Below are positions 40,605 to 58,821 of a stretch of DNA of 64,000 nt, piece after piece. Both the position numbers and the translations under genes were made by a program. Source of the DNA: Mycolicibacterium aurum (GTDB lineage: Bacteria; Actinomycetota; Actinomycetes; Mycobacteriales; Mycobacteriaceae); NCBI GenBank assembly GCA_900078775.1, contig LT549889.1, positions 1,612,001 through 1,676,000 of the forward strand. The letters are read 5' to 3'. Every line of letters begins with the position of its first letter. The first letter of the stretch is position 1. The notes under the pieces are model-generated. The model made no database searches. It worked only from the letters and a program-made list of their open reading frames with translations, and was not told the DNA's origin.

Positions 40605-41377
40605 AATTCGGCTCGGAGGCTTCGGGCGCGGCGACCGCCGCGCTCGCTTCTTCTGTGCCCGCCGAAGGTCACACCCGCGGTGCCATCGTCCAGCTGCTGC
40701 TGGAAGGGCCCGTCACCGCCGGGGACATCGGCCATCGTCTCGGCATCTCCGCCGCGGGCGTCCGCCGTCACCTCGACGCGCTGATCGACGCCGGGGACGC
40801 CGAGGCCAGCGCCGCGGCCGCCTGGCAGCATCACGGCCGGGGCAGGCCGGCCAAGCGCTACCGGCTGACCGCCGCCGGCCGGGCCAAGCTGTCGCACGCC
40901 TACGACGATCTGGCCGTTGCCGCGATGCGCCAGCTCCGCGAGATCGGCGGGGACGAGGCGGTGCGCACCTTCGCGCGGCGCCGCATCGACAGCATCCTGG
41001 CCGGGGTTGCGCAGGTCGGGGACGCCGAGGCGGTCGAACAGGCGACCGATCGGGTCGCCGCCGCACTGACCGACGCCGGTTACGCGACCACCACCGCTCC
41101 GGTGGCCGGCCCGCTGCCCGGAGTGCAGATCTGTCAGCATCACTGTCCGGTGTCACACGTCGCCGAGGAATTTCCCGAGCTCTGTGACGCTGAACAAGAG
41201 GCGTTCGTCGAGATCCTGGGCACCCACGTCCAGCGGCTGGCCACCATCGTCAACGGCGACTTCGCCTGCACCACCCACGTTCCACTGGGCATCACTCCGG
41301 CCGAGCCGGGCAAGCCCACCACCGTTCGGCACGCAGCCCGCGCCGAATCCACCACCACACAAGGAGTGTCGCGATGA
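40601..41377 (+). CDS. sufR: SufR, iron-sulfur-responsive repressor of the suf operon
   Basis: 258 residues from GTG 40601 (VKFGSEASG). No ribosome-binding site precedes it, so the transcript may be leaderless. The N-terminal winged HTH of the ArsR/DeoR type reads [20 protein letters not shown]. The C-terminal sensor carries the Fe-S ligands CQHHC and ELCDAEQ around residue 180-200. With its cluster bound it represses suf. The longer open frame to 40193 runs antisense to mptB. The stop overlaps the sufB start by 4 bases. Confidence 0.92.
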
Positions 41378-42804
41378 CCCTCACCCCGGAGACCCCGCTG
41401 ACTCAGGAAGAGACCATTGCGTCCCTGGGGAAGTACGGCTACGGCTGGTCGGATTCCGATGTCGCCGGCGCCAGCGCCCAGCGCGGCCTGAACGAGGCGG
41501 TGGTCCGCGATATCTCGGCGAAGAAGAGCGAGCCCGAATGGATGCTCGACATCCGCCTCAAGGCGCTGCGCACCTTCGACAAGAAGCCGATGCCGAACTG
41601 GGGTTCGGACCTCGACGGCATCTTCTTCGACAACATCAAGTACTTCGTGCGCTCCAGCGAGAAGCAGGCCGCCACCTGGGACGACCTGCCCGCAGACATC
41701 AAGAACACCTACGACAAGCTGGGCATCCCGGAGGCCGAGAAGCAGCGCCTGGTCTCCGGCGTCGCCGCCCAGTACGAGTCCGAGGTGGTCTACCACTCGA
41801 TCCGTGAGGATCTGGAGGCCCAGGGTGTCATCTTCCTGGACACCGACTCCGGCCTGCGCGAGCATCCCGAACTGTTCCGCAAGTACTTCGGCACCGTCAT
41901 CCCGGCCGGGGACAACAAGTTCTCCGCGCTGAACACCGCGGTGTGGTCGGGTGGCTCGTTCATCTACGTGCCGCCGGGCGTGCACGTCGACATCCCGTTG
42001 CAGGCCTATTTCCGGATCAACACCGAGAACATGGGCCAGTTCGAGCGCACCCTGATCATCGTCGACGAGGGCGCCTACGTGCACTACGTCGAGGGCTGCA
42101 CCGCGCCGATCTACAAGTCCGACTCGCTGCACTCCGCGGTCGTCGAGATCATCGTCAAGCCCGGTGGCCGGTGCCGCTACACGACCATTCAGAACTGGTC
42201 GAACAACGTCTACAACCTGGTGACCAAGCGTGCCCGCGCCGAGGCCGGCGCCACCATGGAGTGGGTCGACGGCAACATCGGGTCCAAGGTCACCATGAAG
42301 TACCCGGCGGTCTGGATGACCGGTGAGTACGCCAAGGGCGAGGTGCTCTCGGTGGCATTCGCCGGTGAGGGCCAGCACCAGGACACCGGTGCCAAGATGC
42401 TGCATCTGGCGCCGCACACGTCGAGCAACATCGTGTCCAAGTCGGTGGCCCGCGGTGGTGGCCGCGCCTCCTACCGCGGCCTGGTCCAGGTGAACAAGGG
42501 CGCGCACGGGTCGCGCTCTAGCGTGAAATGCGATGCGCTGCTGGTGGATACCATCAGCCGCAGCGACACCTACCCGTACGTCGACATCCGCGAGGACGAC
42601 GTCACGATGGGCCACGAGGCCACCGTGTCGAAGGTCAGCGAGGATCAGCTGTTCTACCTGATGAGCCGCGGCCTCACCGAGGACGAGGCGATGGCGATGG
42701 TGGTGCGCGGCTTCGTCGAACCGATCGCCAAGGAACTGCCGATGGAATACGCGCTTGAGCTCAACCGGCTCATCGAACTGCAGATGGAAGGGGCCGTGGG
42801 TTAG
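41374..42804 (+). CDS. sufB: Fe-S cluster scaffold protein SufB
   Basis: 476 residues, the length of an uninterrupted SufB. It is the scaffold of the SufBCD complex on which clusters form. Characteristic stretches are [59 protein letters not shown] (with the scaffold Cys) and [20 protein letters not shown]. The M. tuberculosis homologue carries an intein; none is present here. ATG 41374 overlaps the sufR stop. Confidence 0.97.
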
Positions 42805-44003
42805 TGGCTTCGCAACTCACTCAGGCGTCCGAAGGCGCCGCCAAGCCCGGCTCGGTGCTCAACCTGAACAAGGGCGAACTGTTCGCCTCCTACGACGTCA
42901 ACGCCTTCGAGGTGCCCGGCGGCCGTGATGAGCTGTGGCGGTTCACCCCGCTCAAGCGGCTGCGCGGCCTGCACGACGGGTCTGCCGTCGCGACAGGTTC
43001 CGCGCTGATCGAGGTGACCGAGCGTCCCGGCGTCACGGTGGAGACCGTCGGTCGCGACGACGAGCGCCTCGGTAAGGCCGGCGTACCCACCGATCGTGTT
43101 GCCGCCCAGGCCTATTCGTCCTTCGGTAACGCGACCGTGGTGACCGTGGCCCGCGACACCGAGGTGGCCGAGCCGATCGAGATCGTGGTCAACGGTCCCG
43201 GCGAGGGGAACGTCGCCTACGGGCATCTGCAGATCCGGGTCGAGGAACTGTCCCGCGCCATCGTGGTGGTGGACCTGCGGGGCAGCGGAACCTACGCCGA
43301 CAACGTCGAGATCATTGTCGGCGACTCCGCCGGTCTCGGGGTCATCTGGATCGCCGACTGGGCCGACGACGCCGTGCATGTCAGCGCGCACCACGCCAAG
43401 CTGGGCAAGGATGCCACCCTCGGGCACGTCAACGTCACCCTCGGTGGCGATGTGGTGCGTACCTCGGCCACCGTGCGGTTCACCGCCCCCGGCGGTGACG
43501 CCAAGATGCTGGGCACCTACTTCGCCGACGCCGGCCAGCATTTCGAGTCGCGACTGCTCGTCGACCACGCGGTGCCCAACTGCAAGTCCGACGTGCTGTA
43601 CAAGGGTGCGCTGCAAGGGGATCCGGACTCCGACAAGCCCGATGCACACACCGTGTGGATCGGCGACGTGCTGATCCGGGCCGAGGCCACCGGCACCGAC
43701 ACCTACGAGGCGAACCGCAACCTGGTGCTCACCGACGGGGCCCGCGCCGACTCGGTTCCCAACCTGGAGATCGAGACCGGCGAGATCGTGGGCGCCGGGC
43801 ACGCCAGCGCGACGGGGCGTTTCGACGATGAGCAGCTGTTCTACCTGCGTGCCCGCGGTATCCCCGAGGACCAGGCCCGCCGGCTGGTGGTGCGCGGTTT
43901 CTTCAACGAGATCATCGCGAAGATCGCCGTGCCCGCCGTGCGCGAACGCCTCACCGAAGCCATCGAACGAGAACTAGAAATCACGGAATCGAGAACCGCT
44001 TAA
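42804..44003 (+). CDS. sufD: Fe-S cluster assembly protein SufD
   Basis: 399 residues from GTG 42804, overlapping the sufB stop by one base. SufD is a paralogue of SufB sharing the beta-helix core. LKRLRGLHDGSAV opens the domain and HVNVTLGGDVVRTSATVRF lies mid-core. The C-terminal helix reads LFYLRARGIPEDQARRLVV and GFFNEIIAKIAVPAVRERL. It pairs with SufB on the SufC dimer and is needed for iron delivery. Confidence 0.96.
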   Translation: MASQLTQASEGAAKPGSVLNLNKGELFASYDVNAFEVPGGRDELWRFTPLKRLRGLHDGSAVATGSALIEVTERPGVTVETVGRDDERLGKAGVPTDRVAAQAYSSFGNATVVTVARDTEVAEPIEIVVNGPGEGNVAYGHLQIRVEELSRAIVVVDLRGSGTYADNVEIIVGDSAGLGVIWIADWADDAVHVSAHHAKLGKDATLGHVNVTLGGDVVRTSATVRFTAPGGDAKMLGTYFADAGQHFESRLLVDHAVPNCKSDVLYKGALQGDPDSDKPDAHTVWIGDVLIRAEATGTDTYEANRNLVLTDGARADSVPNLEIETGEIVGAGHASATGRFDDEQLFYLRARGIPEDQARRLVVRGFFNEIIAKIAVPAVRERLTEAIERELEITESRTA

Positions 44004-44005
44004 TC

Positions 44006-46052
<2,047 letters not shown>

Positions 46053-46056
46053 TCTG

Positions 46057-46545
46057 ATGAGACTGGAACAGATGTACCAGGAAGTGATCCTGGACCACTA
46101 CAAGCACCCGCACCACCGCGGGTTGCGCGAACCGTTCGGCGCCGAGGTGCACCACGTCAACCCCACTTGCGGGGACGAGGTGACGCTGCGGGTCGCGCTG
46201 TCGGCGGACGGCGAGAGTGTCGAGGACGTCTCCTACGACGGCCAGGGCTGTTCGATCAGCCAGGCCGCGACCTCGGTGCTCACCGATCAGGTGATCGGGC
46301 AGACCGTCGGCGACGCGCTCAAGACCGTCGCCGCCTTCACCGAGATGATCTCCTCGCGCGGCAACGTCGAGGGCGACGAAGATGTGATCGGGGACGGGAT
46401 CGCCTTCGCGGGCGTCTCCAAGTACCCCGCCCGGGTGAAATGCGCCCTACTGGGCTGGTTGGCGTTCAAGGCTGCCCTGGCCGAGGCCAGGCCATTGACC
46501 GAAGCGCTGGTCGAGGCCAGCCACGATGTGGAGGACAAACGATGA
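46057..46545 (+). CDS. sufU: SufU sulfur-transfer protein
   Basis: 162 residues, the SufU type found with SufS in Gram-positive bacteria. The three zinc/sulfur-acceptor Cys are in NPTCGDEVTL, GQGCSISQAATS and RVKCALLGWLAFK. LDHYKHPHHRG near the start is a family mark. It accepts persulfide from SufS through a zinc-ligand swap. Its stop overlaps the sufT start (ATGA). Confidence 0.96.
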   Translation: MRLEQMYQEVILDHYKHPHHRGLREPFGAEVHHVNPTCGDEVTLRVALSADGESVEDVSYDGQGCSISQAATSVLTDQVIGQTVGDALKTVAAFTEMISSRGNVEGDEDVIGDGIAFAGVSKYPARVKCALLGWLAFKAALAEARPLTEALVEASHDVEDKR

Positions 46546-46910
46546 GTGACGCCGCCGAAGGAACCCAGCCCGCCCCTGCGGCCGACCAGGCCTTCCTGGC
46601 CGACGTCGAAGAGGCCATGCGCGATGTGGTCGACCCCGAACTCGGGATCAACGTCGTGGACCTCGGTCTGGTGTACGGACTCGACGTCGAGGAGGGGGAG
46701 AGCGGCCCGGTGGCGCGCATCGATATGACCCTCACCTCGGCGGCCTGCCCGCTCACCGATGTCATCGAGGATCAGACCCGCACCGCGCTGGTGGGTGCCG
46801 GCCTGGTCAACGACATCAAACTCAACTGGGTGTGGAACCCGCCGTGGGGCCCGGACAAGATCACCGACGACGGCCGCGAGCAGCTGCGTGCCCTCGGCTT
46901 CACCGTCTGA
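46542..46910 (+). CDS. sufT: SufT (DUF59/MIP18-like) Fe-S cluster maturation factor
   Basis: 122 residues from ATG 46542. DUF59 domain with the conserved VVDPELGINVVDLGLVYGL start, the single cluster-handling Cys in LTSAACPLTDVIEDQ, and the C-terminal WNPPWGPDKITDDGREQLR. SufT proteins help deliver clusters to target enzymes, possibly including aconitase, encoded 9 kb downstream. The longer frame to 46167 is a shadow of sufU. Confidence 0.94.
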   Translation: MSDAAEGTQPAPAADQAFLADVEEAMRDVVDPELGINVVDLGLVYGLDVEEGESGPVARIDMTLTSAACPLTDVIEDQTRTALVGAGLVNDIKLNWVWNPPWGPDKITDDGREQLRALGFTV

Positions 46911-46986
46911 TCGAATCCGACGTTACGGTCCGGCGTGTTCGGGCAATACTGGGAATTGGCAGCATCGCCCCAACGTTAGGAAAAGC

Positions 46987-47340
46987 GTGAGTACAAAGGA
47001 CATCACCGCAGCCGAGTTCCAGGCACTCGTCGAGGAGAACGAGATCGTTCTGCTCGACTTCTGGGCGTCGTGGTGCGGTCCGTGCCGCGCCTTCGCCCCG
47101 ACGTTCGGTGCGTCGGCCGAGAAGCATCCCGATGTGGTGCACGCGAAGGTCGACACCGAGGCCGAGCCCGAACTCGCCCAGGCCGCCGAGATCCAGGCGA
47201 TCCCGACGCTGATGGCGTTCAAGAAGGGCAAGCAGGTGTTCCGGCAGTCCGGTGCGCTGGGTCCGGCCCAGCTCGAAGAGCTGATCACCAAGATCAAGGA
47301 ATTCGACATCGACGCCGCGATCGCGGCGCAGGAGAACTGA
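46987..47340 (+). CDS. trxB1: Thioredoxin
   Basis: 117 residues from GTG 46987, with AGGAAAA six bases before it. Classic thioredoxin: LLDFWASWCGPCRAFAPTF with the redox CGPC, the cis-Pro in AIPTLMAFKKGK, and VHAKVDTEAEPELAQAA. The match to the M. tuberculosis Rv1471 type is by sequence and by its place after the suf operon. Seventy-six bases separate it from sufT, so it probably has its own promoter. Confidence 0.93.
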   Translation: MSTKDITAAEFQALVEENEIVLLDFWASWCGPCRAFAPTFGASAEKHPDVVHAKVDTEAEPELAQAAEIQAIPTLMAFKKGKQVFRQSGALGPAQLEELITKIKEFDIDAAIAAQEN

Positions 47341-47350
47341 GCCGCTCCGC

Positions 47351-47791
47351 TCACAGGGCGGCAAGTGCGGCCCGCAAGCGCCCCTCGAGATCTCCGCGGC
47401 CGGTCAGGTAGAGCGGGCCGGCGCCGTCGGCCAGCAGTCTGCGCAGCCGGGCGACTCCTCTGGCACCGACGGCCCGGGGTGAATGCAGCCGTTCGATGAG
47501 CTCGTCGATGGCGCCCTCGGATGCCCGGATGTTCGCCTCGTGGACGGGTATCGGTGCGATCCGCCGGACCCGTCCGCGGCGTACATCGGTGACCACTCCG
47601 CTCAGTGCCCGCGCGATGCACCGACGTTCCCGATCGGACTCCAGCCGCGCGGCGTGCACGGCCGAGGCACTACCGGGTTCACCGAAGAAGCCGAGCGACA
47701 GTTGGCCGTCGAGCCGGGAAGCGCGCAGCCGCGCGGTGATCCGGGCGGCTACCGGACGCATCGCCACCGCGACACCCGTTCGGCGCTTCAC
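47351..47791 (-). CDS. Small protein of unknown function coupled to the acyl-CoA synthetase
   Basis: 146 residues from GTG 47791, which overlaps the synthetase stop (GTGA). It is basic, with the segments ITARLRASRLDGQLSLGFFG, HEANIRASEGAIDELIERL and GAGPLYLTGRGDLEGRLRAA. No catalytic motif, signal peptide or membrane span is visible. Helical content and Arg-rich repeats might suggest a partner protein, but I do not recognise the family. It lies between trxB1 and echA12, genes I recall as adjacent in M. tuberculosis, so it is part of an insertion. Confidence 0.75.
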   Translation of the reverse strand: MKRRTGVAVAMRPVAARITARLRASRLDGQLSLGFFGEPGSASAVHAARLESDRERRCIARALSGVVTDVRRGRVRRIAPIPVHEANIRASEGAIDELIERLHSPRAVGARGVARLRRLLADGAGPLYLTGRGDLEGRLRAALAAL

Positions 47792-49476
47792 TTCATCACC
47801 GCCCCGGTGCGTCTGGCCGCGTACAACTCCTCGATCTGCCCGGCATACTTCTCCACGATCTTGGCGCGCCGGAGTTTCATGGTCGGGGTGAGCTCGTCGG
47901 ATCCGGGGCGCCAGGGCCCGGGCAGCACGGTGAACCGCTTGACCTGTTCGACTCTGGCCAACCGTTGATTCGCGCGGTCGATATGCGCCCACAATGCCAC
48001 GGTCAGTTCGTCCAGTCCCGGGAAGGTCTCTGCCGCAACCGGATCGACGACGATGAGTGCCACATTGTAGGGACGGCCATCTCCGATCACGCAGGCGTGA
48101 TCGATGAGATGGCCACTCTCGCGCAGTCGCGCTTCGATGTTGGCTGGGGACATGTTCTTACCGCTGGAGTTGATGATGAGATCTTTCTTGCGGTCGACGA
48201 TCCGGATCCTCCCGTCGCCGTCGATCTGCCCGACATCGCCGGTGTGCAGCCAGCCGGCACCGTCGAGTGCGGCCGCCGTCGCGTCCGGGCGGTCGCGGTA
48301 CCCGACCATCACCGACGGGCCGCGCACCAGCAGTTCGCCGTCGTCGGCGAGGCGAACCTCGGTGCCCGGAAACGGTTTTCCGACGGATCCGATATCGCCG
48401 ACCTCGCTCAGCGAGATGACGCCGGATGTTTCGGACATTCCGTAGATCTCGCGTAGCGGGACACCGATGCCATGGAAGTACTCGATGACGCCGGGCGGGC
48501 AGGGAGCCGCGCCGGTGAGGGCGACCTCGGAGCGGGCCAGGCCGATGCCACGACGGATGTGTACATGGTCGGTCCCGGCCGCACGCTCACCCGCGGTGAG
48601 TGCTTGCAGCTTCTCCCAGATGCGTGGCGGGGCGAAGAAGATCTCCGGTTGCACGTCTTTGAGAACCGGAATCAGCCGGGCCTGATCCGGGCAGCAGACC
48701 ACGGTGGAGCCGACCAGGATGTGCGAATAATGAGTGGAGATCCGCTCGGCGATATGGGCCATCGGCAGGTAGGAGACCGACCAGTTGTCGCGGCGCATCC
48801 CGAGGCGCTCCGCCAGCACGGTGGTGGTACTCATGATGCTCTGGTGGGTCAGGACAACGCCTTTGGGCGCACCCGTCGTTCCGGAGGTGTAGATCACCGT
48901 CGCAGCGTCGGTCGGGCAGGGCGGGGTTCGGGATGTGCCTGAGGCGGCGAGAAGGCCGGTGCCGGTGTCGGACAACAGTCGGCCCCAGGACTCGGTTCCG
49001 ACGGTGACGACGTGCTGCACCGGTACGTCGTCGAGATCGAGGGCCGCGTCGAGTGCGCGGGCCAGACCGGCTTCGGTGATCACGACGCGGCAGTTCGCGT
49101 TTCGCAGGATCTCCGCCAGTTGTTCCGGTGCGCAGGTTTGATACAGCGAGAACGGGGTGGCGCCGGCCAGCAGGGCAGCGACGTCGGCGACGTGGAATTC
49201 GGGTCGATTGCTCAACAGCAGGCCGACCGTGTCACCCGGGACCACGCCCGCGGCCCGCAGTCCCGCGGCGGCGCGGTGTGCCATCGCTCCGTACTCCCGC
49301 CAGGTCAGGGCGGGGTCGAGGTGTTGATCCCGAATGGCGACCGCGTCGCCGAGGTCGCGGACTCGGGAAACGAAGGCCTCCACCACCGTGGCGGGAGTGA
49401 CTTCGTCGCATTCGTTGTACGAAATATCCTGATCCAGCACTGGATTCGGGTCGGGTCGACAATGTGACGATGGCAT
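47788..49476 (-). CDS. Acyl-CoA synthetase / AMP-dependent ligase (FadD-like)
   Basis: 562 residues from ATG 49476, preceded by AGGAGCG at 7 bases. Adenylate-forming enzyme: P-loop YTSGTTGAPKGVVLTHQS, EIYGMSETSGVISLSE, the hinge motif DGRIRIVDRKKDLIINSSGK, and the acceptor Lys in LTPTMKLRRAKIVEKY. The DRKKDLI and EIFFAPPRIWEKL features are typical of long-chain fatty acyl-CoA synthetases. It would activate a fatty acid with ATP and CoA. The frame is open upstream to 50082, but that part runs antisense through the echA12 fragment. Confidence 0.92.
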   Translation of the reverse strand: MPSSHCRPDPNPVLDQDISYNECDEVTPATVVEAFVSRVRDLGDAVAIRDQHLDPALTWREYGAMAHRAAAGLRAAGVVPGDTVGLLLSNRPEFHVADVAALLAGATPFSLYQTCAPEQLAEILRNANCRVVITEAGLARALDAALDLDDVPVQHVVTVGTESWGRLLSDTGTGLLAASGTSRTPPCPTDAATVIYTSGTTGAPKGVVLTHQSIMSTTTVLAERLGMRRDNWSVSYLPMAHIAERISTHYSHILVGSTVVCCPDQARLIPVLKDVQPEIFFAPPRIWEKLQALTAGERAAGTDHVHIRRGIGLARSEVALTGAAPCPPGVIEYFHGIGVPLREIYGMSETSGVISLSEVGDIGSVGKPFPGTEVRLADDGELLVRGPSVMVGYRDRPDATAAALDGAGWLHTGDVGQIDGDGRIRIVDRKKDLIINSSGKNMSPANIEARLRESGHLIDHACVIGDGRPYNVALIVVDPVAAETFPGLDELTVALWAHIDRANQRLARVEQVKRFTVLPGPWRPGSDELTPTMKLRRAKIVEKYAGQIEELYAARRTGAVMK

Positions 49477-49553
49477 CGGTTCACGCTCCTGATGTGATGG
49501 GGTGGAAGTCTGGGTGCGCGCTGAGCGCTTGGGCCCCGGTGGCCGCGACTGCG

Positions 49554-49667
49554 TCAGATCATGACCAACGTGACCGCCGCCACGGCGGTGATCAGTACGA
49601 GGGTCGACAGGATCGACACGAGGGTGCGCTTGACCAGGTCGAGGTCTGGGATCGGATCTCTTGTCAC
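49554..49667 (-). CDS. Possible 37-residue membrane micro-protein divergent from echA12
   Basis: GTG 49667 opens VTRDPIPDLDLVKR, then the hydrophobic stretch TLVSILSTLVLITAVAAVTL and a stop at 49554-49556. That predicts a short cytosolic head and one membrane helix. The same head, read as VTKDFLPGTEPVKR, is encoded in the second copy of this region at 52434-52493, where nucleotide identity is low but the pattern VT-D-P-VKR is kept. That conservation is the main support. No strong ribosome-binding site. Confidence 0.4.
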   Translation of the reverse strand: MTRDPIPDLDLVKRTLVSILSTLVLITAVAAVTLVMI

Positions 49668-50098
49668 CAGACGATCGTCTGGCCATCTCGATGTCCCAAC
49701 CAGGCCGAACTTCTCCTGGCCCTGGAAGGGCCACACTCACGCGCGGGGCGATAACCTGCTTCTCGTGTCTGAGAACAGCGAATTCATCCGCGTCGAGAGC
49801 CCCGAACCCGGCGTGGCGTTGGTCACCCTCAACCGGCCGGAGCGGATGAATTCGATGGCGTTCGACGTCATGGTCCCGCTGCGCGCGGTGATCGCCGACC
49901 TGCACCACGACACCTCGGTGCGGGTGGTGATCCTCACAGGCGCGGGCCGCGGATTCTCCTCGGGAGCCGACCACAAGTCGGCCGGATCGGTGCCGCACGT
50001 CGACGGTCTGACCCGCCCGTCGTATGCGCTGCGATCCATGGAAGTGCTCGACGAGGTCATCCTGGGCCTGCGCCGGTTGCACCAGCCGGTGATCGCCG
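49629..50098 (+). repeat. Left copy of a diverged direct repeat (micro-ORF head, promoter, echA12 start)
   Basis: This segment is repeated at 52452-52949. The coding parts look about 90 percent identical and differ mostly at third positions; the promoter part has indels (right copy about 28 bases longer). Homology stops abruptly at CTTGACC on the left and GATCGCCG on the right. The repeats flank the acyltransferase gene. Confidence 0.8.
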
Positions 50099-50109
50099 AA
50101 ATCCGTTGA
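49765..50109 (+). pseudogene. Truncated 5' copy of echA12 (enoyl-CoA hydratase)
   Basis: GTG 49765 starts 114 residues matching the first 111 of the full gene at 52616 with about ten substitutions, then AEIR and a stop at 50107-50109. It contains LNRPERMNSMAFDV and the oxyanion-hole stretch GAGRGFSSGADHKSAG but lacks the second half of the crotonase fold, including the glycine-rich active-site loop. A TAACCT -10-like hexamer lies before the start, as in the intact copy. It could still be transcribed but should not give an active enzyme. Confidence 0.8.
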
Positions 50110-50230
50110 GAAATCCCGGACGCCGTGGGAGTAACCGCTTCACACCGCACCGCCACCCGGCCCGCGGAAGCACACCGGTTCCGTCGACTCCGGCATCTGA
50201 CGGCGCCGGTACCGACCAAACCGGGCGGGC

Positions 50231-50640
50231 TCAGGCGTGGGCCAACGCCCGGTCGATCAAGGCGCCCAAGGCCGGCCCCAGCGCTGTGGCGTACTGCTTC
50301 GTCATGTGGCTCGCGTCGTAGAACACCATGGTGTCCTCGACCACCGGAGGGCACCGATCACCTGAACAGAACAGATCGACGGTGCTCGCATACTGCCCAC
50401 CGTTCTTTTCGACGATCGCGGACTCGGCCTCGATGCCGGGATTGTTGGACGGACGCCACTGCGCCTCGCATACCTTTGCGTCGTCCAGGTGTGCCGACAG
50501 GCAGTTGGTGGCCACCGAGGCGAGCTTCGGTTCGGGTCCCAGGATCAGTACCTGCGAACCGTAACTGCGGAGCTCACGTACCAACTCACCCAATCCGTCG
50601 ATCCACGCCGAGTTGAACGGGTCGAATCCTGCCTTGCCCA
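50231..50640 (-). pseudogene. C-terminal SGNH part of the frameshifted acyltransferase
   Basis: In the frame ending at 50231-50233, the sequence from about 50640 reads GKAGFDPFNSAWIDGLGELV and later MVFYDASHMTKQYATALGPA. It ends the SGNH domain and supplies the Asp-x-x-His catalytic pair. It is joined to the upstream acyltransferase frame by adding one base to the CCC run at 50637-50639 (plus strand). As it stands it has no start of its own. Confidence 0.7.
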
Positions 50641-52437
50641 GACCGTGACGCCGTCCGCACCGTAGCTCCGCACCGCGGAGAGAACTACCAGTTGCGGTGG
50701 CTCGGCACGCATCCTCGACATGATTCCGGTTCGCCACTCCGCACAGCGCTGGAACTTCTCGGACATGCCGTTCAGGTGGGTGGTCAGCGGGAGGTCGACA
50801 ATCGGGCAGGACGCCTTGGCCATCAGCAGCATCCGCCAATTCCGCTCGTCGACCGCCCGCTGCAGTGCCGGGTGCCACATCGCGGCGTGTGAGTCACCGA
50901 TCAGGGCGATCGTCGTATCCGACCCGCGGTTACCGGTGATGCAATCGGGATGACTGCTGTCGAACGGCATTGACCGCAGACATCCGTTGGCGATTATCGA
51001 CTTGACTTGTTCGACGGTGCCGGTGAGCGGCGGCGTCAGATTCGACGGAACTGCCATCAGCCCGATCGAGGCCGCGACATCGGCATTCACCTGGGCGAAG
51101 ACATCGTCCACCGCGGCGTCGTACTCCTGCAGGGGCCGACCCTGCGGGGTGGGCTCCGCGGTGATGATCAACGGACGGGCGGCCGGTCCGGTACCGACCG
51201 GCGCTGGCCCCGCCCCCATCGTGGCAGCTCCGGCAGCCACCGCCACCGCGGTGACCGCGGCGCCGAGCAGCAGGCTGTTGCGCGGCGAGTCGCGGAAGCG
51301 TGGGGAGAATCGCACGGGATTCTCGACAAACCGCAGCGTCAACGCAGCAAGACCGGCAGACAGTGTCATCAGGGCCAGCCTCCCGACCAGGCCGACCTGA
51401 TGTCCCAGGGCTGCCGGGATCAGCACCAGCACCGGCCAGTGCCATAGGTACCACGAGTAGGAGATCCGGCCGATCGCGCGCATCGGTGCCGTCCCCAAGA
51501 ACTGACCGCATCCCCGGTCCCCGTTCGAGCACCCTGCGGCGATGACCATGGCGGTGGCCAGCGTGGGAAGCAGCGCCGTCACACCGGGGTAGTCGGCGCG
51601 GCCGTTCACCCAGAAGCACGCGAACACCAAGGCGCCCAGTCCGGCCCACCCGAGCACCGTGGCCAGCCCTCGCCCGAGCCGCTGCCAGTACACGACGGTG
51701 AGCGCCACCAGACCACCGACGGCCATTTGCCAGGCGCGGGTGGGCAGTGACAGGTAGGCCGCCGGCGGCATGATCAAGGTCAGCACCAGCGACAGCGAGA
51801 AGGACACCACCACGATCAGCGCGAGAACGACCACGTAGGGCGTCACCGACGGCGCAGATCCGCTCAGGTCGGTAAACATACGTCGGGCCCGGAGTATGCA
51901 CCAGGCCGTCGCGATCATCAGCACCGGCCACAGCAGGTAGAACTGTTCCTCGACGCCCAGCGACCAGTAGTGCTGGAACGGTGACGGGGTGGTCAGGCTG
52001 TCCTTGCCGAAATAGTTCATCCCCGAGGCGATGAACCAGAAGTTGCTCACGTAGAGCGCGCTGGTGATGGCGTCCATGGAGACGGTCTTCACCTGCAACG
52101 GGGACAGGATGAACGCCGAGGCAATCATCGTGACGACACCCACCAGGGCCGAGGCCGGCAGCAGTCGACGCGCCCGGGCCGCCCAGAATTTGCGCAGGCT
52201 GACCGTTCCCGATGTGCCGACCTGGCGCCACAGCAGGCCGGTGATCAGGAACCCCGAGATGACGAAGAAGACGTCGACGCCGATGAACCCACCCTGAATC
52301 CCGGGTATACCGGCGTGGAAGAGGACGACGGCCATCACGGCAACGGCGCGCAGTCCCTCGATGTCGGGACGAAAACCACTCGGCACCGTCGTAGCGGTGT
52401 GCAGAGAGGCTCCGCGCTCCCGGACCGGTGAGCTCAC
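50545..52437 (-). CDS. Acyltransferase-3/SGNH membrane O-acetyltransferase, frameshifted near its end
   Basis: 630 residues in the open frame from GTG 52437. The OafA/YrhL-like acyltransferase-3 domain occupies about 20-375, with ten to eleven membrane helices. FRPDIEGLRAVAVMAVVLFH carries the usual RxxD/His features, and GGFIGVDVFFVISGFLIT and HYWSLGVEEQFYLLWPVL follow. After about residue 455 comes an SGNH domain (TTIALIGDSHAAMWHPAL). At about 50637 the frame breaks and ends in unrelated residues; restoring one base gives about 735 residues with the missing catalytic Asp/His. Such proteins acetylate cell-surface glycans or lipids. The gene is flanked by direct repeats. Confidence 0.85.
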   Translation of the reverse strand: MSSPVRERGASLHTATTVPSGFRPDIEGLRAVAVMAVVLFHAGIPGIQGGFIGVDVFFVISGFLITGLLWRQVGTSGTVSLRKFWAARARRLLPASALVGVVTMIASAFILSPLQVKTVSMDAITSALYVSNFWFIASGMNYFGKDSLTTPSPFQHYWSLGVEEQFYLLWPVLMIATAWCILRARRMFTDLSGSAPSVTPYVVVLALIVVVSFSLSLVLTLIMPPAAYLSLPTRAWQMAVGGLVALTVVYWQRLGRGLATVLGWAGLGALVFACFWVNGRADYPGVTALLPTLATAMVIAAGCSNGDRGCGQFLGTAPMRAIGRISYSWYLWHWPVLVLIPAALGHQVGLVGRLALMTLSAGLAALTLRFVENPVRFSPRFRDSPRNSLLLGAAVTAVAVAAGAATMGAGPAPVGTGPAARPLIITAEPTPQGRPLQEYDAAVDDVFAQVNADVAASIGLMAVPSNLTPPLTGTVEQVKSIIANGCLRSMPFDSSHPDCITGNRGSDTTIALIGDSHAAMWHPALQRAVDERNWRMLLMAKASCPIVDLPLTTHLNGMSEKFQRCAEWRTGIMSRMRAEPPQLVVLSAVRSYGADGVTVWARQDSTRSTRRGSTDWVSWYVSSAVTVRRY

Positions 52438-52493
52438 CGGACGTCCAGTCTCTTGACCGGTTCGGTGCCCGGCAGGAAATCTTTGGTCACCAT
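52434..52493 (-). pseudogene. Truncated second copy of the micro-ORF, overlapping the acyltransferase start
   Basis: ATG 52493 opens MVTKDFLPGTEPVKRLDVR and stops with a GTGA overlap on the acyltransferase GTG at 52437. Its first 14 residues parallel the head of the micro-protein at 49554-49667, while the membrane helix is lost at the repeat boundary. It may now act as a leader peptide that couples translation to the acyltransferase. Confidence 0.4.
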
Positions 52494-52949
52494 GAAATCG
52501 TCTTGTCTTCTCGGCGGCCCAACCAGGCCGCGCTTCTCATGGCCCCGGCAGGACCACGCACCGGCTGCGGCCATCGCGCCGCCGTGGTCGCCGGTCGCGC
52601 GATAACGTGCCTCACGTGTCTGAGCGCAGCGAGTTCGTCCTCGTCGATCACCCCGAGCCCGGCGTGGCGTTGGTCACCCTGAACCGTCCCGAACGGATGA
52701 ACTCGATGGCGTTCGACGTCATGGTTCCGTTGCGTGCGGTGATCGACGACCTGCACAACGACAACTCGGTGCGGGTGGTGATCCTCACAGGCGCGGGCCG
52801 CGGGTTCTCCTCCGGAGCCGACCACAAGTCGGCCGGGTCGGTCCCGCACGTCGAGGGTCTGACCCGCCCGTCGTACGCGCTGCGCTCCATGGAGGTGCTC
52901 GACGAGGTGATCCTGGGGCTGCGCCGGCTACACCAGCCGGTGATCGCCG
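52452..52949 (+). repeat. Right copy of the diverged direct repeat
   Basis: Counterpart of 49629-50098. It runs from the head of the truncated micro-ORF, through the promoter, into the first 330 bases of the intact echA12. The pair of repeats encloses 50099-52451, almost exactly the acyltransferase gene. Confidence 0.8.
52603..52608 (+). promoter_or_regulatory. Probable -10 element for a leaderless echA12 transcript
   Basis: TAACGT fits the mycobacterial TANNNT -10 pattern and ends 7 bases before the GTG at 52616, placing the transcript start at or next to the start codon. The equivalent TAACCT is kept in the truncated copy upstream, while most of the surrounding promoter has diverged. Confidence 0.45.
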
Positions 52950-53437
52950 CGGTCAACGGTGCGGCCATCGGCGGGGGCCTGTGCCTGGCACTGGCCTGCG
53001 ATATCAGGCTTGCCGCCGACGGCGCGTACTTCCGGGCCGCCGGCATCAACAACGGCCTGACGGCGAGCGAACTGGGCCTGTCGTATCTGCTGCCCCGAGC
53101 GATCGGGGCGTCGCGGGCCTTCGAGATCATGCTCACCGGTCGCGACGTCGCCGCCGCCGAGGCCGAACGGATCGGTCTGGTGTCCAGCGTCACCCCCGGG
53201 GATGAGCTGCTGGCGCGCTGTCTGGAGATGGCCCGCGGCATCGCGGCGTTCTCCCGGCCGGGAATCGAATTGACCAAGCGGACTCTTTGGAGTGGACTAG
53301 ACGCCGGTAGCCTGGAAGGCCACATGCAGGCCGAGGGCCTGGGCCAGCTCTACGTGCGTCTACTCACCGCCAATTTCGAGGAAGCGGTTGCCGCGCGCGC
53401 GGAGAACCGGCCCCCGGCCTTCACCGACGACAAGTAG
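52616..53437 (+). CDS. echA12: Enoyl-CoA hydratase (crotonase family)
   Basis: 273 residues from GTG 52616 (VSERSEFVLV). GTG 52607 is in frame, but the -10 element and similarity favour 52616. Crotonase fold hydrating trans-2-enoyl-CoA in fatty-acid oxidation. Oxyanion hole GAGRGFSSGADHKSAGS, the second loop NGAAIGGGLCLALACDIRLA and AAGINNGLTASELGLSYLLP. The usual active-site Glu pair is not obvious to me, as in several EchA paralogues, so the exact reaction is open. Followed 28 bases later by the ABC-F gene. Confidence 0.92.
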   Translation: MSERSEFVLVDHPEPGVALVTLNRPERMNSMAFDVMVPLRAVIDDLHNDNSVRVVILTGAGRGFSSGADHKSAGSVPHVEGLTRPSYALRSMEVLDEVILGLRRLHQPVIAAVNGAAIGGGLCLALACDIRLAADGAYFRAAGINNGLTASELGLSYLLPRAIGASRAFEIMLTGRDVAAAEAERIGLVSSVTPGDELLARCLEMARGIAAFSRPGIELTKRTLWSGLDAGSLEGHMQAEGLGQLYVRLLTANFEEAVAARAENRPPAFTDDK

Positions 53438-53465
53438 TTCACGACAGACATGAGGAGGTAGTTGC

Positions 53466-55094
53466 GTGATCACCGCAACGGACCTGGAGGTCCGCGCCGG
53501 GGCGCGCACACTGCTGTCCATCGAGGGATCGGCGCTGCGGATCCAGCCCGGCGACCGGATCGGCCTGGTCGGCCGCAACGGCGCAGGCAAGACCACCACG
53601 ATGCGCATCCTGGCCGGTGAGGGTGAGCCCTACGCCGGGAAGGTCGAGTCCACCGGGGAGATCGGCTACCTGCCCCAGGATCCGCGCGAGGGCGACCTGA
53701 GCGTGCTCGCCCGCGACCGGGTGCTCTCCGCGCGCGGCCTGGACACCCTGCTGGCGGATCTGGAGAAGCAGCAGGCGCTGATGGCCGAGGTCGCCGACGA
53801 CGCCGCCCGGGACAAGGCGGTCCGGCGCTACGGCCAGTTGGAGGAACGATTCTCCGCGCTCGGCGGCTACGCGGCCGAGAGTGAGGCCGGGCGGATCTGC
53901 GCGAGCCTGGGCCTGCCCGACCGGGTGCTCACTCAGCAGCTGCGCACGCTGTCCGGTGGTCAGCGCCGCCGGGTGGAGCTGGCCCGGATCCTGTTCGCGG
54001 CGTCGGATACCGGTTCCGGGTCGGCGACTACGCTATTGCTCGACGAGCCCACCAACCACCTCGATGCCGACTCGATCGGGTGGCTGCGCGGCTTCCTGCA
54101 GAACCACTCCGGCGGCCTCGTGGTGATCAGCCACGATGTGGACCTGCTGGCCGATGTGGTGAACCGGGTGTGGTTCCTGGACGCGGTGCGCGGTGAGGCC
54201 GACGTCTACAACATGGGCTGGCAGAAGTACCTGGATGCCCGCGCCACCGACGAGCAGCGGCGGCGCCGGGAACGCGCCAACGCCGAGAAGAAGGCGGGCG
54301 CCCTGCGCGCCCAGGCCGCCAAGATGGGCGCCAAAGCCACCAAAGCCGTTGCCGCCCAGAACATGTTGCGCCGTGCCGAGCGGATGATCGCTGAGCTCGA
54401 TGATGAGCGGGTGGCCGACAAGGTGGCCCGGATCAAGTTCCCGACCCCGGCCCCGTGCGGTAAGACGCCGCTGGTGGCCAAGGGTTTGACCAAGACCTAC
54501 GGCTCGCTGGAGATCTTCACCGGGGTGGACCTGGCCATCGACCGCGGCTCGCGGGTCGTGGTGCTCGGGCTCAACGGCGCCGGCAAGACCACGTTGCTGC
54601 GCCTGCTGGCCGGCACCGAATCGGCCGACGCGGGCGCCATCGAACCCGGGCACGGCCTCAAGATCGGGTACTTCGCCCAGGAGCACGACACTCTCGACAA
54701 CGAGGCGACGGTCTGGGAGAACATCCGGCACGCCGCCCCGGACACCGGGGAACAGGATCTGCGAGGTCTGTTGGGCGCGTTCATGTTCACCGGCCCGCAG
54801 CTCGAGCAGCCGGCCGGCACCCTGTCCGGCGGCGAGAAGACCCGCCTTGCCCTGGCCGGTCTGGTCGCCTCCACCGCCAACGTGTTGCTGCTCGACGAGC
54901 CGACCAACAACCTGGACCCCGCATCGCGCGAGCAGGTGCTCGACGCGCTGCGCAGCTACCAGGGTGCGGTGGTGCTGGTGACCCACGATCCGGGGGCGGC
55001 CGAGGCGCTGGACCCGCAGCGGGTGGTATTGCTGCCCGACGGCACCGAGGACTTCTGGTCCACCGAGTACCGGGATCTCATCGAACTGGCATAG
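53466..55094 (+). CDS. ABC-F family ATPase (ribosome-associated type)
   Basis: 542 residues from GTG 53466, with AGGAGG at 53453-53458. Two ABC domains without membrane spans. Domain 1 has GRNGAGKTTTMRILAG, LSGGQRRRVELARILF and LLLDEPTNHLDADS. Domain 2 has GLNGAGKTTLLRLLAG, LSGGEKTRLALAGLV and LLLDEPTNNLDPAS. Between them (about 250-320) is a basic alpha-helical linker rich in Arg/Lys. ABC-F proteins bind the ribosomal E site; the M. tuberculosis homologue (Rv1473) is annotated as a macrolide-transport ATPase, probably a misnomer. Confidence 0.94.
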   Translation: MITATDLEVRAGARTLLSIEGSALRIQPGDRIGLVGRNGAGKTTTMRILAGEGEPYAGKVESTGEIGYLPQDPREGDLSVLARDRVLSARGLDTLLADLEKQQALMAEVADDAARDKAVRRYGQLEERFSALGGYAAESEAGRICASLGLPDRVLTQQLRTLSGGQRRRVELARILFAASDTGSGSATTLLLDEPTNHLDADSIGWLRGFLQNHSGGLVVISHDVDLLADVVNRVWFLDAVRGEADVYNMGWQKYLDARATDEQRRRRERANAEKKAGALRAQAAKMGAKATKAVAAQNMLRRAERMIAELDDERVADKVARIKFPTPAPCGKTPLVAKGLTKTYGSLEIFTGVDLAIDRGSRVVVLGLNGAGKTTLLRLLAGTESADAGAIEPGHGLKIGYFAQEHDTLDNEATVWENIRHAAPDTGEQDLRGLLGAFMFTGPQLEQPAGTLSGGEKTRLALAGLVASTANVLLLDEPTNNLDPASREQVLDALRSYQGAVVLVTHDPGAAEALDPQRVVLLPDGTEDFWSTEYRDLIELA

Positions 55095-55193
55095 CCCTGT
55101 TCGCAAGACAATTCGTTCGTTCCCACCCGGTCTGTTTGTGGGCTTCCTAGTGTGGGTATGCGCACACCTGCATCGCGAAGTGGGGAGATGTCG

Positions 55194-55382
55194 ATGAAGG
55201 AAACGAACAAGTCGCGTGAACAACTTCTGACCGACCTGCGCAGCGCGTACGAGCGTGGAGCGAGTATCAGGTCGCTGGTAGCAGAGACCGGGCGATCGTA
55301 CGGATCCGTGCACAGCATGCTGCGTGAGTCCGGCGCCCGAATGCGCAGCCGGGGTGGGCCGAACCACCGGAAGGCCAGCTAG
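55194..55382 (+). CDS. Small helix-turn-helix protein
   Basis: 62 residues from ATG 55194; GGGGAG at 55182-55187 sits 6 bases before it, while the ATG at 55188 (MSMKET) is immediately after that site. The sequence LTDLRSAYERGASIRSLVAE followed by TGRSYGSVHSMLRESGARM forms a HTH of the transposase/regulator type, with a basic tail. It matches the conserved mycobacterial small regulator after the ABC-F gene (Rv1473A type). Targets are unknown. Confidence 0.85.
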   Translation: MKETNKSREQLLTDLRSAYERGASIRSLVAETGRSYGSVHSMLRESGARMRSRGGPNHRKAS

Positions 55383-55410
55383 CTGCCGACCTCTCCAGGG
55401 TGGCGCCACA

Positions 55411-55986
55411 TCACTGGGCCCCACCGGGGTGGCGCACGGAATCCTCGACGAGGTCCAGGACCGCGCGCAGCGATTCGGTGTCCTCCCCGGATGCCATCCG
55501 GGCCACCAACCCGTCCAGCACCAGATCCAGGTAGGTCTGCAGCACCGCGCCGGGCACATCGTCGCGCAACCGGCCGGCCTGCTTCTGCTGACGTAACCGT
55601 TCGGTGGTGGCGGCCGACAACTCTGCCGACCGTTCGGCCCAACCTCGTTGGAACGCAGGGTCGTTACGCAGTTTGCGGGCGATCTCCAGACGCGTGACCA
55701 ACCAGTCGAACTGATCGGGCGCGGCCAGCAGATCCCGCATCACCTGAATCAAGCCCTCGCGCGCCGCCACTTCGGCCATCCGTTCGGCGTCCTCGCGGGC
55801 GAGTTCGAAGAACAGGGTGTCCTTGTCGCGGAAGTGATGGAAGATGGCGCCGCGCGACAGCCCGATGGTTTCTTCGAGCCGCCGCACGGTCGCCTTCTCA
55901 TATCCGTATTCGGCGAAGCAACGCCGCGCGCCGTCGAGGATCTGACGGCGGCGGGCCGCCAGATGATCCTCGGTGACCCGAGGCAT
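55411..55986 (-). CDS. acnR: TetR-family repressor AcnR
   Basis: 191 residues. The N-terminal TetR HTH reads TVRRLEETIGLSRGAIFHHF (about 38-57), followed by an all-helical ligand domain. It is transcribed just downstream of acn (stop to start 3 bases), as in corynebacteria and mycobacteria where AcnR represses aconitase. A 16-mer fitting the AcnR consensus lies upstream of acn at 58869-58884, supporting the name. In Corynebacterium citrate-Mg acts as effector. Confidence 0.92.
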   Translation of the reverse strand: MPRVTEDHLAARRRQILDGARRCFAEYGYEKATVRRLEETIGLSRGAIFHHFRDKDTLFFELAREDAERMAEVAAREGLIQVMRDLLAAPDQFDWLVTRLEIARKLRNDPAFQRGWAERSAELSAATTERLRQQKQAGRLRDDVPGAVLQTYLDLVLDGLVARMASGEDTESLRAVLDLVEDSVRHPGGAQ

Positions 55987-55989
55987 GGG

Positions 55990-58821
<2,832 letters not shown>

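What the first reader, a model, noticed from the sequence alone, without database searches (positions are those of the whole stretch)
49629..52949. Acyltransferase gene flanked by diverged direct repeats: footprint of a Campbell-type integration
The order is full micro-ORF, promoter, truncated echA12, acyltransferase, truncated micro-ORF, promoter, full echA12. Direct repeats 49629-50098 and 52452-52949 enclose the acyltransferase. Single-crossover insertion of a circular molecule carrying an internal fragment of this locus gives exactly this pattern: left gene complete and right gene cut in one copy, reversed in the other. The copies differ by roughly 10 percent with mainly synonymous changes, so the incoming fragment looks like a homologue from a related species rather than a recent tandem duplication. 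This would be a natural trace of how surface-modification genes move between mycobacteria without an integrase.
Basis: partly seen in the sequence, partly recalled or inferred. Interest (0 to 1): 0.72.

Follow-up and report, generated by a model that had tools for sequence, protein, structure and literature searches.

The report
Acyltransferase gene between mismatched echA12 copies
In this mycobacterial chromosome a predicted cell-surface acyltransferase gene sits between two unequal copies of the start of the echA12 gene, where the closest relative found has one copy and no such gene; it was likely added when DNA from a sister lineage joined the chromosome by one crossover and one end-join, without an integrase.

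Summary
Direct repeats 49629-50098 and 52452-52949 flank a minus-strand AT3-SGNH acyltransferase gene (50231-52437, frameshifted here). The sister genome G200 (flanks about 92% identical) has the segment once and no acyltransferase there; its alignment to the window breaks at the repeat ends. In the 80 relatives fetched, the trx-echA12 gap is at most 498 bp.

The repeats behave as alleles, not a fresh duplication. Coding parts differ by 9.6%, upstream parts by about 28%. The truncated left echA12 changed under purifying selection (14 of 19 private changes synonymous), so it diverged as part of a whole gene. Upstream, the left copy resembles G200 more; in the coding part, the right copy does. 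A crossover inside the repeat predicts this, but support is modest (p about 0.01-0.03) and the three-way tree is unresolved.

The acyltransferase is not exotic: its four closest matches among 396 genus genomes all lie between sufT and trx, a few kilobases away, in the opposite orientation.

Campbell-type integration is therefore the leading reading, not a proven one. A one-sided linear import and an old full-length duplication remain possible. It is a well-preserved instance of known recombination, of moderate interest.

The parts
46542..46910 (+). sufT-like gene (FeS_assembly_P; the name sufT is recalled); window and G200 are sisters here (100/99)
   Evidence: tree
46987..47340 (+). thioredoxin gene (trx); in the relatives fetched it lies directly upstream of echA12
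   Evidence: dS to G200 0.457
47744..47811 (-). remnant of the 5' end of a phytase-like gene kept whole in G200
47788..49476 (-). fadD-type AMP-binding acyl-CoA ligase gene
   Evidence: Pfam PF00501 E 3.7e-74
49554..49736 (-). full micro-ORF, 60 aa
   Evidence: homologue in G200 at 66%
49629..50098 (.). left repeat copy
49765..50109 (+). truncated echA12 (114 codons), ECH_1 fragment
50099..50230 (.). 132 bp between the left repeat end and the acyltransferase stop; no convincing relative among the sequences held; 50098|50099 is the inferred end-join
50231..52437 (-). AT3-SGNH acyltransferase gene, frameshifted (ORFs 50545-52437 and 50231-50878)
   Evidence: 735-aa homologue
52452..52949 (.). 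right repeat copy
52434..52556 (-). cut micro-ORF: codons 2-37 align to the full one, then four codons and a TGA overlapping the acyltransferase GTG start
   Evidence: alignment; end read
52598..52610 (+). conserved element CGCGATAACGTGC before echA12, present in the right copy and G200, altered in the left copy
52607..53437 (+). full echA12 as listed (276 codons); likely start at GTG 52616
53466..55094 (+). gene for an ATPase with two ABC domains (ABC-F type by recall), conserved neighbour

Best explanation
The acyltransferase gene was likely added by a Campbell-type event: a small DNA molecule from a sister lineage, predicted to have been closed into a circle by end-joining, would have integrated by one crossover inside the shared micro-ORF/echA12 promoter segment. 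Shown: two diverged copies flank the gene, the sister genome has one copy and no gene there, and each copy lacks the opposite end. Inferred: the donor carried the acyltransferase just downstream of its own micro-ORF start (a cargo gene on the left arm of the divergent promoter); its echA12 end was joined to sequence 132 bp beyond the acyltransferase stop; the crossover fell near the echA12 start, so the left copy is native then foreign and the right copy foreign then native. The consequence would be that both arms keep a promoter: the left one for the micro-ORF and fadD, the right one for the acyltransferase and for echA12 with the ABC gene. Ku, part of mycobacterial end-joining (recalled), is encoded and no MutS domain V was found, which would favour both the join and crossover between sequences 10-28% apart.
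For: Empty single-copy site in G200 with breakpoints at the repeat ends; trx-echA12 gap 8-498 bp in 80 of 80 relatives fetched (the best 80 of 431 found), 78 of them at or under 96 bp. Left echA12 private changes 14 synonymous, 5 not, against 27-31% synonymous expected without selection (p 2e-5 to 1.4e-4; with a stricter label 12 of 19, p 9e-4 to 3.5e-3). Reciprocal mosaic: upstream 23 sites join left to G200 and 10 join right to G200; coding 12 and 20 (Fisher p 0.013; break near the echA12 start, permutation p 0.029; upstream against synonymous coding sites p 0.0096). Distances fit one native and one foreign lineage: native-G200 0.165 (micro-ORF part, all sites) and dS 0.149 (coding), foreign-G200 0.277 and 0.251, native-foreign 0.347 and 0.285. 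Ku present, MutS_V absent. The two cargo genes seem to occur together in another strain: a 99% acyltransferase and a 97% fadD both list 8878 bases as their longest contig (that it is one contig is inferred).
Against: No donor or circular molecule was found. The tree of the coding part does not reject left+right as sisters (p-AU 0.49). The mosaic test rests on few sites, and the right upstream part could have changed faster after its micro-ORF was cut. The 132 bp at the join gave no convincing match, so the join cannot be examined for microhomology. The thioredoxin gene of the window groups outside G200 and its kin (92/90, p-AU 0.104 for window+G200) with dS 0.457, which the circle does not explain and which fits a longer linear import on the left. 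Flank dS to G200 varies from 0.109 to 0.457, so neither copy stands out as native by distance alone.
Confidence: 0.42

Rival explanations
1. One-sided import of linear chromosomal DNA (homology-facilitated illegitimate recombination, for instance after distributive conjugal transfer): one end of the incoming stretch recombined by homology and the other was end-joined at 50098|50099. No circle is needed; either the left part (trx to echA12 fragment) or the right part (acyltransferase to echA12) is the newcomer.
For: Needs only linear DNA, one homologous end and one illegitimate join, as described for other bacteria (start of the abstract of PMC3240628; passages of PMC5361080). Window trx falls outside G200+L004+L011+L001 (92/90) while sufT groups window+G200 at 100/99, and trx dS is 0.457: a foreign left stretch would do this.
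Against: Predicts one copy native throughout and the other foreign throughout the repeat, not the reciprocal change seen near the echA12 start. The grouping of trx is not significant (p-AU 0.104).
Confidence: 0.28
2. Old tandem duplication inside this lineage of a longer unit holding a whole echA12, one copy later cut back when the acyltransferase came in or by deletion.
For: Left and right copies are not rejected as sisters (p-AU 0.49); constraint on the left copy is also expected if it was whole until recently.
Against: Needs a whole duplicate kept for about as long as the window-G200 split and lost in G200, which has one copy; the 80 relatives fetched have at most 498 bp between trx and echA12. 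A short duplicate that decayed since is contradicted by 14 of 19 synonymous private changes.
Confidence: 0.18
3. Template switching during replication: the acyltransferase was copied from its usual sufT-trx position, in reverse, with a 490-bp duplication of the landing site.
For: The four closest matches lie between sufT and trx in the opposite orientation, and duplication with an inverted insert is a usual product of such events (recalled).
Against: Copies made in one event start identical; dS 0.285 between them and constraint on the cut copy do not fit. No acyltransferase remains between sufT and trx in the window (76-bp gap, from coordinates).
Confidence: 0.08
4. Assembly artefact or recent duplication.
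For: The acyltransferase has a frameshift, which can be a sequencing error.
Against: The copies differ by about 10-28%, so they cannot be a collapse or a misjoin of one sequence; both cargo genes recur at 97-99% with the same longest contig length of 8878.
Confidence: 0.02

Closest known systems
Campbell-type (single-crossover, insertion-duplication) integration (recalled)
   Same: Direct repeats of the homologous segment flank the insert; each copy lacks the opposite end; the empty site has one copy.
   Different: Natural, the repeats are about 10-28% diverged, the acyltransferase frames fill the insert and leave no room for a replicon or integrase gene, and the circle is only inferred.
Homology-facilitated illegitimate recombination (PMC3240628, start of abstract seen in a listing; Vibrio cholerae effector displacement PMC5361080, passages seen)
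   Same: One homologous anchor, one illegitimate join, new gene added and an old gene left as a fragment.
   Different: Here the anchor is a divergent promoter segment that is duplicated, and the copies look reciprocally mosaic.
Distributive conjugal transfer in mycobacteria (PMC3706393, passages seen)
   Same: Known route for chromosomal DNA between mycobacteria, with microcomplex recombination tracts.
   Different: The passages seen describe exchanges and in/dels, not additive insertions with a duplicated anchor ('duplicat' occurs 0 times in its main text); the route here is untested.
Merodiploids formed by transformation in Streptococcus pneumoniae (PMC3784515, passages seen)
   Same: A short donor fragment leads to duplicated chromosomal sequence.
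   Different: The duplications in the passages seen are mostly long (107-936 kb; one of 3.3 kb) and made of the cell's own sequence; here 490 bp and diverged.

Membership tests
Campbell-type integration | Homologous segment present as direct repeats on both sides of the insert | tested here: met
Campbell-type integration | Single-copy empty site in a close relative | tested here: met
   G200; trx-echA12 gap at most 498 bp in 80 of 80 relatives fetched
Campbell-type integration | Genes cut at opposite ends in the two copies | tested here: met
Campbell-type integration | Both copies switch ancestry at one crossover point | tested here: inconclusive
   Fisher p 0.013, max-chi-square p 0.029; few sites
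Campbell-type integration | Circular donor molecule | not testable with these tools
   no donor found; no plasmid record covers 80% of 47300-53440 at one place
Homology-facilitated illegitimate recombination | One homologous end, one illegitimate join | tested here: inconclusive
   sequence beyond one join has no convincing relative; ancestry of the copies unresolved
Simple tandem duplication | The two copies are each other's closest relatives | tested here: inconclusive
   best tree has right+G200 at 58/13; left+right p-AU 0.49
Simple tandem duplication | Truncated copy decays without selection | tested here: not met
   14 of 19 private changes synonymous; no stop in 111 codons
AT3-SGNH acyltransferases | PF01757 and PF19040 domains over the curated cut-offs | tested here: met
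   N-terminal and C-terminal pieces searched apart
AT3-SGNH acyltransferases | One intact reading frame | tested here: not met
   frame broken in this assembly; a 735-aa homologue exists
Site-specific or transposon insertion | Integrase or transposase gene inside the insert | tested here: not met
   acyltransferase frames fill 50231-52437 of 50099-52451, leaving 132 and 14 bp; IS ends were not searched for
Distributive conjugal transfer | Donor segments from a mating partner across the genome | not tested
   no genome-wide ancestry scan was made

The most novel reading that the evidence does not exclude
The micro-ORF/echA12 divergent promoter acts as a homology anchor at which mycobacteria stack cargo operons without an integrase: chromosomal fragments closed by Ku-dependent end-joining integrate by one crossover, and each integration duplicates the promoter, so old cargo, new cargo and the conserved right-hand genes all stay expressed.
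Probability: 0.2. Interest if true: 0.62.

Novelty: new member of a known kind. Interest (0 to 1): 0.42.

Why it matters
Additive recombination is best known from experiments with selectable markers (recalled). Here a wild mycobacterial chromosome seems to keep both copies made by such an event, diverged enough for the crossover and the join to be located. If confirmed with sister strains, it would show how single accessory genes, here a predicted surface-modifying acyltransferase, can be added next to conserved genes without mobile elements and without losing the neighbours' promoters.

Tried and rejected
Phage or plasmid carriage: the viral collection gave 75 loci encoding relatives of the acyltransferase N-terminal piece, best segments at 26-41% identity but for two short ones at 51 and 53%; 157 plasmid records matched somewhere in 47300-53440 but none covered 80% of it. 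Rejected as a near source. Rfam: 0 matches in 46000-54000. A wider hunt for the donor: micro-ORF searches found a clear match only in the own genome and G200 (2 of 297 at E 0.001; 4 of 396 at E 0.01, the two extra being weak at 0.007-0.009; 1 of 401, the own genome, a draw that listed no match for G200). The protein database gave one 37-aa near-identical fragment for the micro-ORF. A first promoter pattern before echA12 was found in only 2 of 80 relatives; a pattern fitted to the sequences printed there then gave 56 of 80, so that element is fitted after the fact. In one search the thioredoxin row used a wrong reading frame and is void; one search replaces it. Literature searches: in their listings I saw no report of this locus or of a natural Campbell-type footprint in mycobacteria; I read passages of three papers only. 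One of the 80 relatives (L025) bears a Bifidobacterium title but its echA12 is mycobacterial-like (83%); it was kept in the counts and in the trees. The trees used selected rows: 22, 30 and 29.
Full report
WHAT IS THERE. The window holds suf-type genes ending in a sufT-like gene (46542-46910), a thioredoxin gene (46987-47340), a fadD-type ligase on the minus strand (47788-49476), a 60-aa micro-ORF on the minus strand (49554-49736), the first 114 codons of an echA12 frame (49765-50109), an AT3-SGNH acyltransferase on the minus strand (50231-52437), a cut micro-ORF, the whole echA12 (52607-53437 as listed; likely start 52616) and a gene with two ABC domains. Two direct repeats, 49629-50098 and 52452-52949, enclose the acyltransferase. 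Pfam places the two acyltransferase pieces in PF01757 and PF19040, the ligase in PF00501, the echA12 pieces in PF00378, trx in PF00085 and the sufT-like protein in PF01883; the micro-ORF has no family. The gene names echA12, fadD, suf and ABC-F are recalled or taken from the finding. The acyltransferase frame is broken in this assembly; a 735-aa homologue at 99% over the 590-aa N-terminal piece exists.

EMPTY SITE. Of 297 genus genomes only G200, besides the own genome, shares the micro-ORF clearly (66%). Its locus (L122) aligns at about 92% with both flanks (40796-46913 and 52452-58000). One G200 stretch, 10454-10943, appears in the window twice, and the two alignments stop at 50098 and start at 52452. 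So G200 shows the site without the acyltransferase (none in L122). In the 80 named relatives kept by the echA12 scan (the best 80 of 431), the gap between trx and echA12 is 8-498 bp in 80 of 80, at or under 96 bp in 78. The gap between sufT and trx, measurable in 61 of the 80, is 43-6120 bp: that interval, not trx-echA12, is the usual cargo slot.

WHERE THE ACYLTRANSFERASE COMES FROM. Among 396 genus genomes the four closest matches are G389 (78%), G348 (72%), G286 (70%) and G260 (69%); the next, including a copy elsewhere in G200, are at 60% or below in the list shown. In all four the gene lies between sufT and trx, reading toward trx (in G260 the contig ends inside trx, so echA12 is not seen). 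DNA homology to G389 covers 50231-52422 at 80%, in reverse orientation. The window gene is thus the counterpart of a gene that other species keep next door, moved about 5 kb and inverted. None of these four is close enough to be the direct donor (inference). The 132 bp between its stop and the left repeat gave no convincing match in the sequences held. None of the 80 named relatives showed it within the stretch fetched.

ALLELES, NOT A FRESH DUPLICATION. Over 334 coding nt left and right are 90.4% identical; right-G200 93.1%, left-G200 90.4%; the next relative L004 is at 85.6% (left) and 87.4% (right). dS is 0.285 left-right, 0.149 right-G200, 0.251 left-G200; flanking genes between window and G200 range from 0.109 to 0.457. 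A tree of 22 chosen rows joins left, right and G200 at 100/97 but leaves their order open: right+G200 58/13, left+right not rejected (p-AU 0.49), left+G200 p-AU 0.195. The tree alone therefore neither supports nor refutes transfer. The kind of change is more telling: of 19 changes private to the left copy, 14 are synonymous (p 2e-5 to 1.4e-4 against 27-31% expected without selection); counting by the stricter codon label 12 of 19 still gives p 9e-4 to 3.5e-3. The left piece has diverged while part of a whole echA12. Either it comes from another lineage, or it was whole here until recently.

A RECIPROCAL MOSAIC. Upstream of column 150 of the repeat alignment, 23 sites join left with G200 and 10 join right with G200; after it, 12 and 20 (Fisher p 0.013). 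The best break lies at columns 174-185, just inside echA12 (permutation p 0.029). Upstream sites against synonymous coding sites alone give p 0.0096. Faster change of the cut right micro-ORF could imitate the first half of the pattern; but the micro-ORF shows little constraint in any copy (private changes syn:non 2:7 left, 4:14 right, 0:4 G200; left-G200 dN 0.205, dS 0.105), so loss of constraint explains little, and it also casts doubt on whether the micro-ORF is a protein gene. Three distances describe both halves: native-G200 0.165/0.149, foreign-G200 0.277/0.251, native-foreign 0.347/0.285 (the first of each pair is all sites of the micro-ORF part, the second dS of the coding part). The spacer adds right-G200 18 of 49 and left-G200 3 of 29 differences. 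This is what a crossover inside the repeat would leave.

MECHANISM. Best reading: a fragment of a sister lineage with the acyltransferase placed on the left arm of its micro-ORF/echA12 divergent promoter was closed on itself by end-joining (50098|50099) and integrated by one crossover near the echA12 start. Shown: anatomy, empty site, constraint on the left piece. Moderately supported: the mosaic. Inferred: circle, donor, order of events. The genome has Ku and no detectable MutS domain V (the MutS search rings in 11 of 14 control genomes, Ku in 1 of 14). Passages of PMC3706393 say that mycobacteria have non-homologous end-joining and no known mismatch repair system. Predicted consequence: both arms keep promoters. 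A 13-bp element before echA12, defined after looking at these sequences, is found in 56 of 80 relatives, against 62 same-strand hits in the whole 1.10 Mb of their loci; it is present in the right copy and G200 and altered in the left. The cut micro-ORF frame ends in a TGA overlapping the GTG of the acyltransferase, which would allow translational coupling.

RIVALS. A one-sided linear import explains the trx result (window trx outside G200, L004, L011, L001 at 92/90, p-AU 0.104, against sufT 100/99) but not the reciprocal mosaic. An old whole-gene tandem duplication cut recently is not excluded. Template switching and assembly error fit badly.

HISTORY OF THE LEFT ARM. In G077 the closest fadD among 396 genomes (67%) is followed by a phytase-like gene (PF13449). 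The window keeps fadD and the first codons of that gene; G200 keeps the phytase-like gene behind sequence matching the fadD start region. This suggests an ancestral pair that the two sisters halved in opposite ways.

VERDICT. The footprint is real and the transfer reading is better supported than simple duplication; the circular, Campbell form leads without being proven. Known kinds of recombination suffice, so novelty is low and interest moderate.

Noticed in passing
47744-49476 in the window; L122 10101-10223; L161 1327-4349: Reciprocal decay of a fadD and phytase-like gene pair: the window kept fadD and a stub of the phytase-like gene, G200 kept the phytase-like gene and a stub like the fadD start; G077 has both in tandem.
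   Followed up: partly
46911-46986 in the window; L001-L080, L122, L156-L159: The sufT-trx interval is highly variable (43-6120 bp in the 61 of 80 relatives where it could be measured) and carries different genes, such as the AT3 acyltransferase in four genomes and a GH16 hydrolase in G200.
   Followed up: partly
46987-47340: The thioredoxin gene is more diverged from G200 (dS 0.457) than the other genes measured here and groups outside G200 and its kin (not significant), suggesting a separate import in one of the two.
   Followed up: partly
52598-52610; upstream of echA12 in L001-L080: A near-palindromic element like CGCGATAGCGTGC precedes echA12 in 56 of 80 relatives and is otherwise rare in these loci; a promoter or operator candidate, defined after the fact.
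   Followed up: partly
50545-50878: The acyltransferase frame is broken in this assembly while a 99% homologue of 735 aa exists; real mutation or sequencing error is open.
   Followed up: partly
49554-49736: The 60-aa micro-ORF keeps its length and a hydrophobic end in G200 but shows dN above dS, so it may not be a protein gene.
   Followed up: partly
L025: A contig titled Bifidobacterium breve (metagenome bin) carries a mycobacterial-type trx-echA12-ABC locus, likely a binning error.
   Followed up: no
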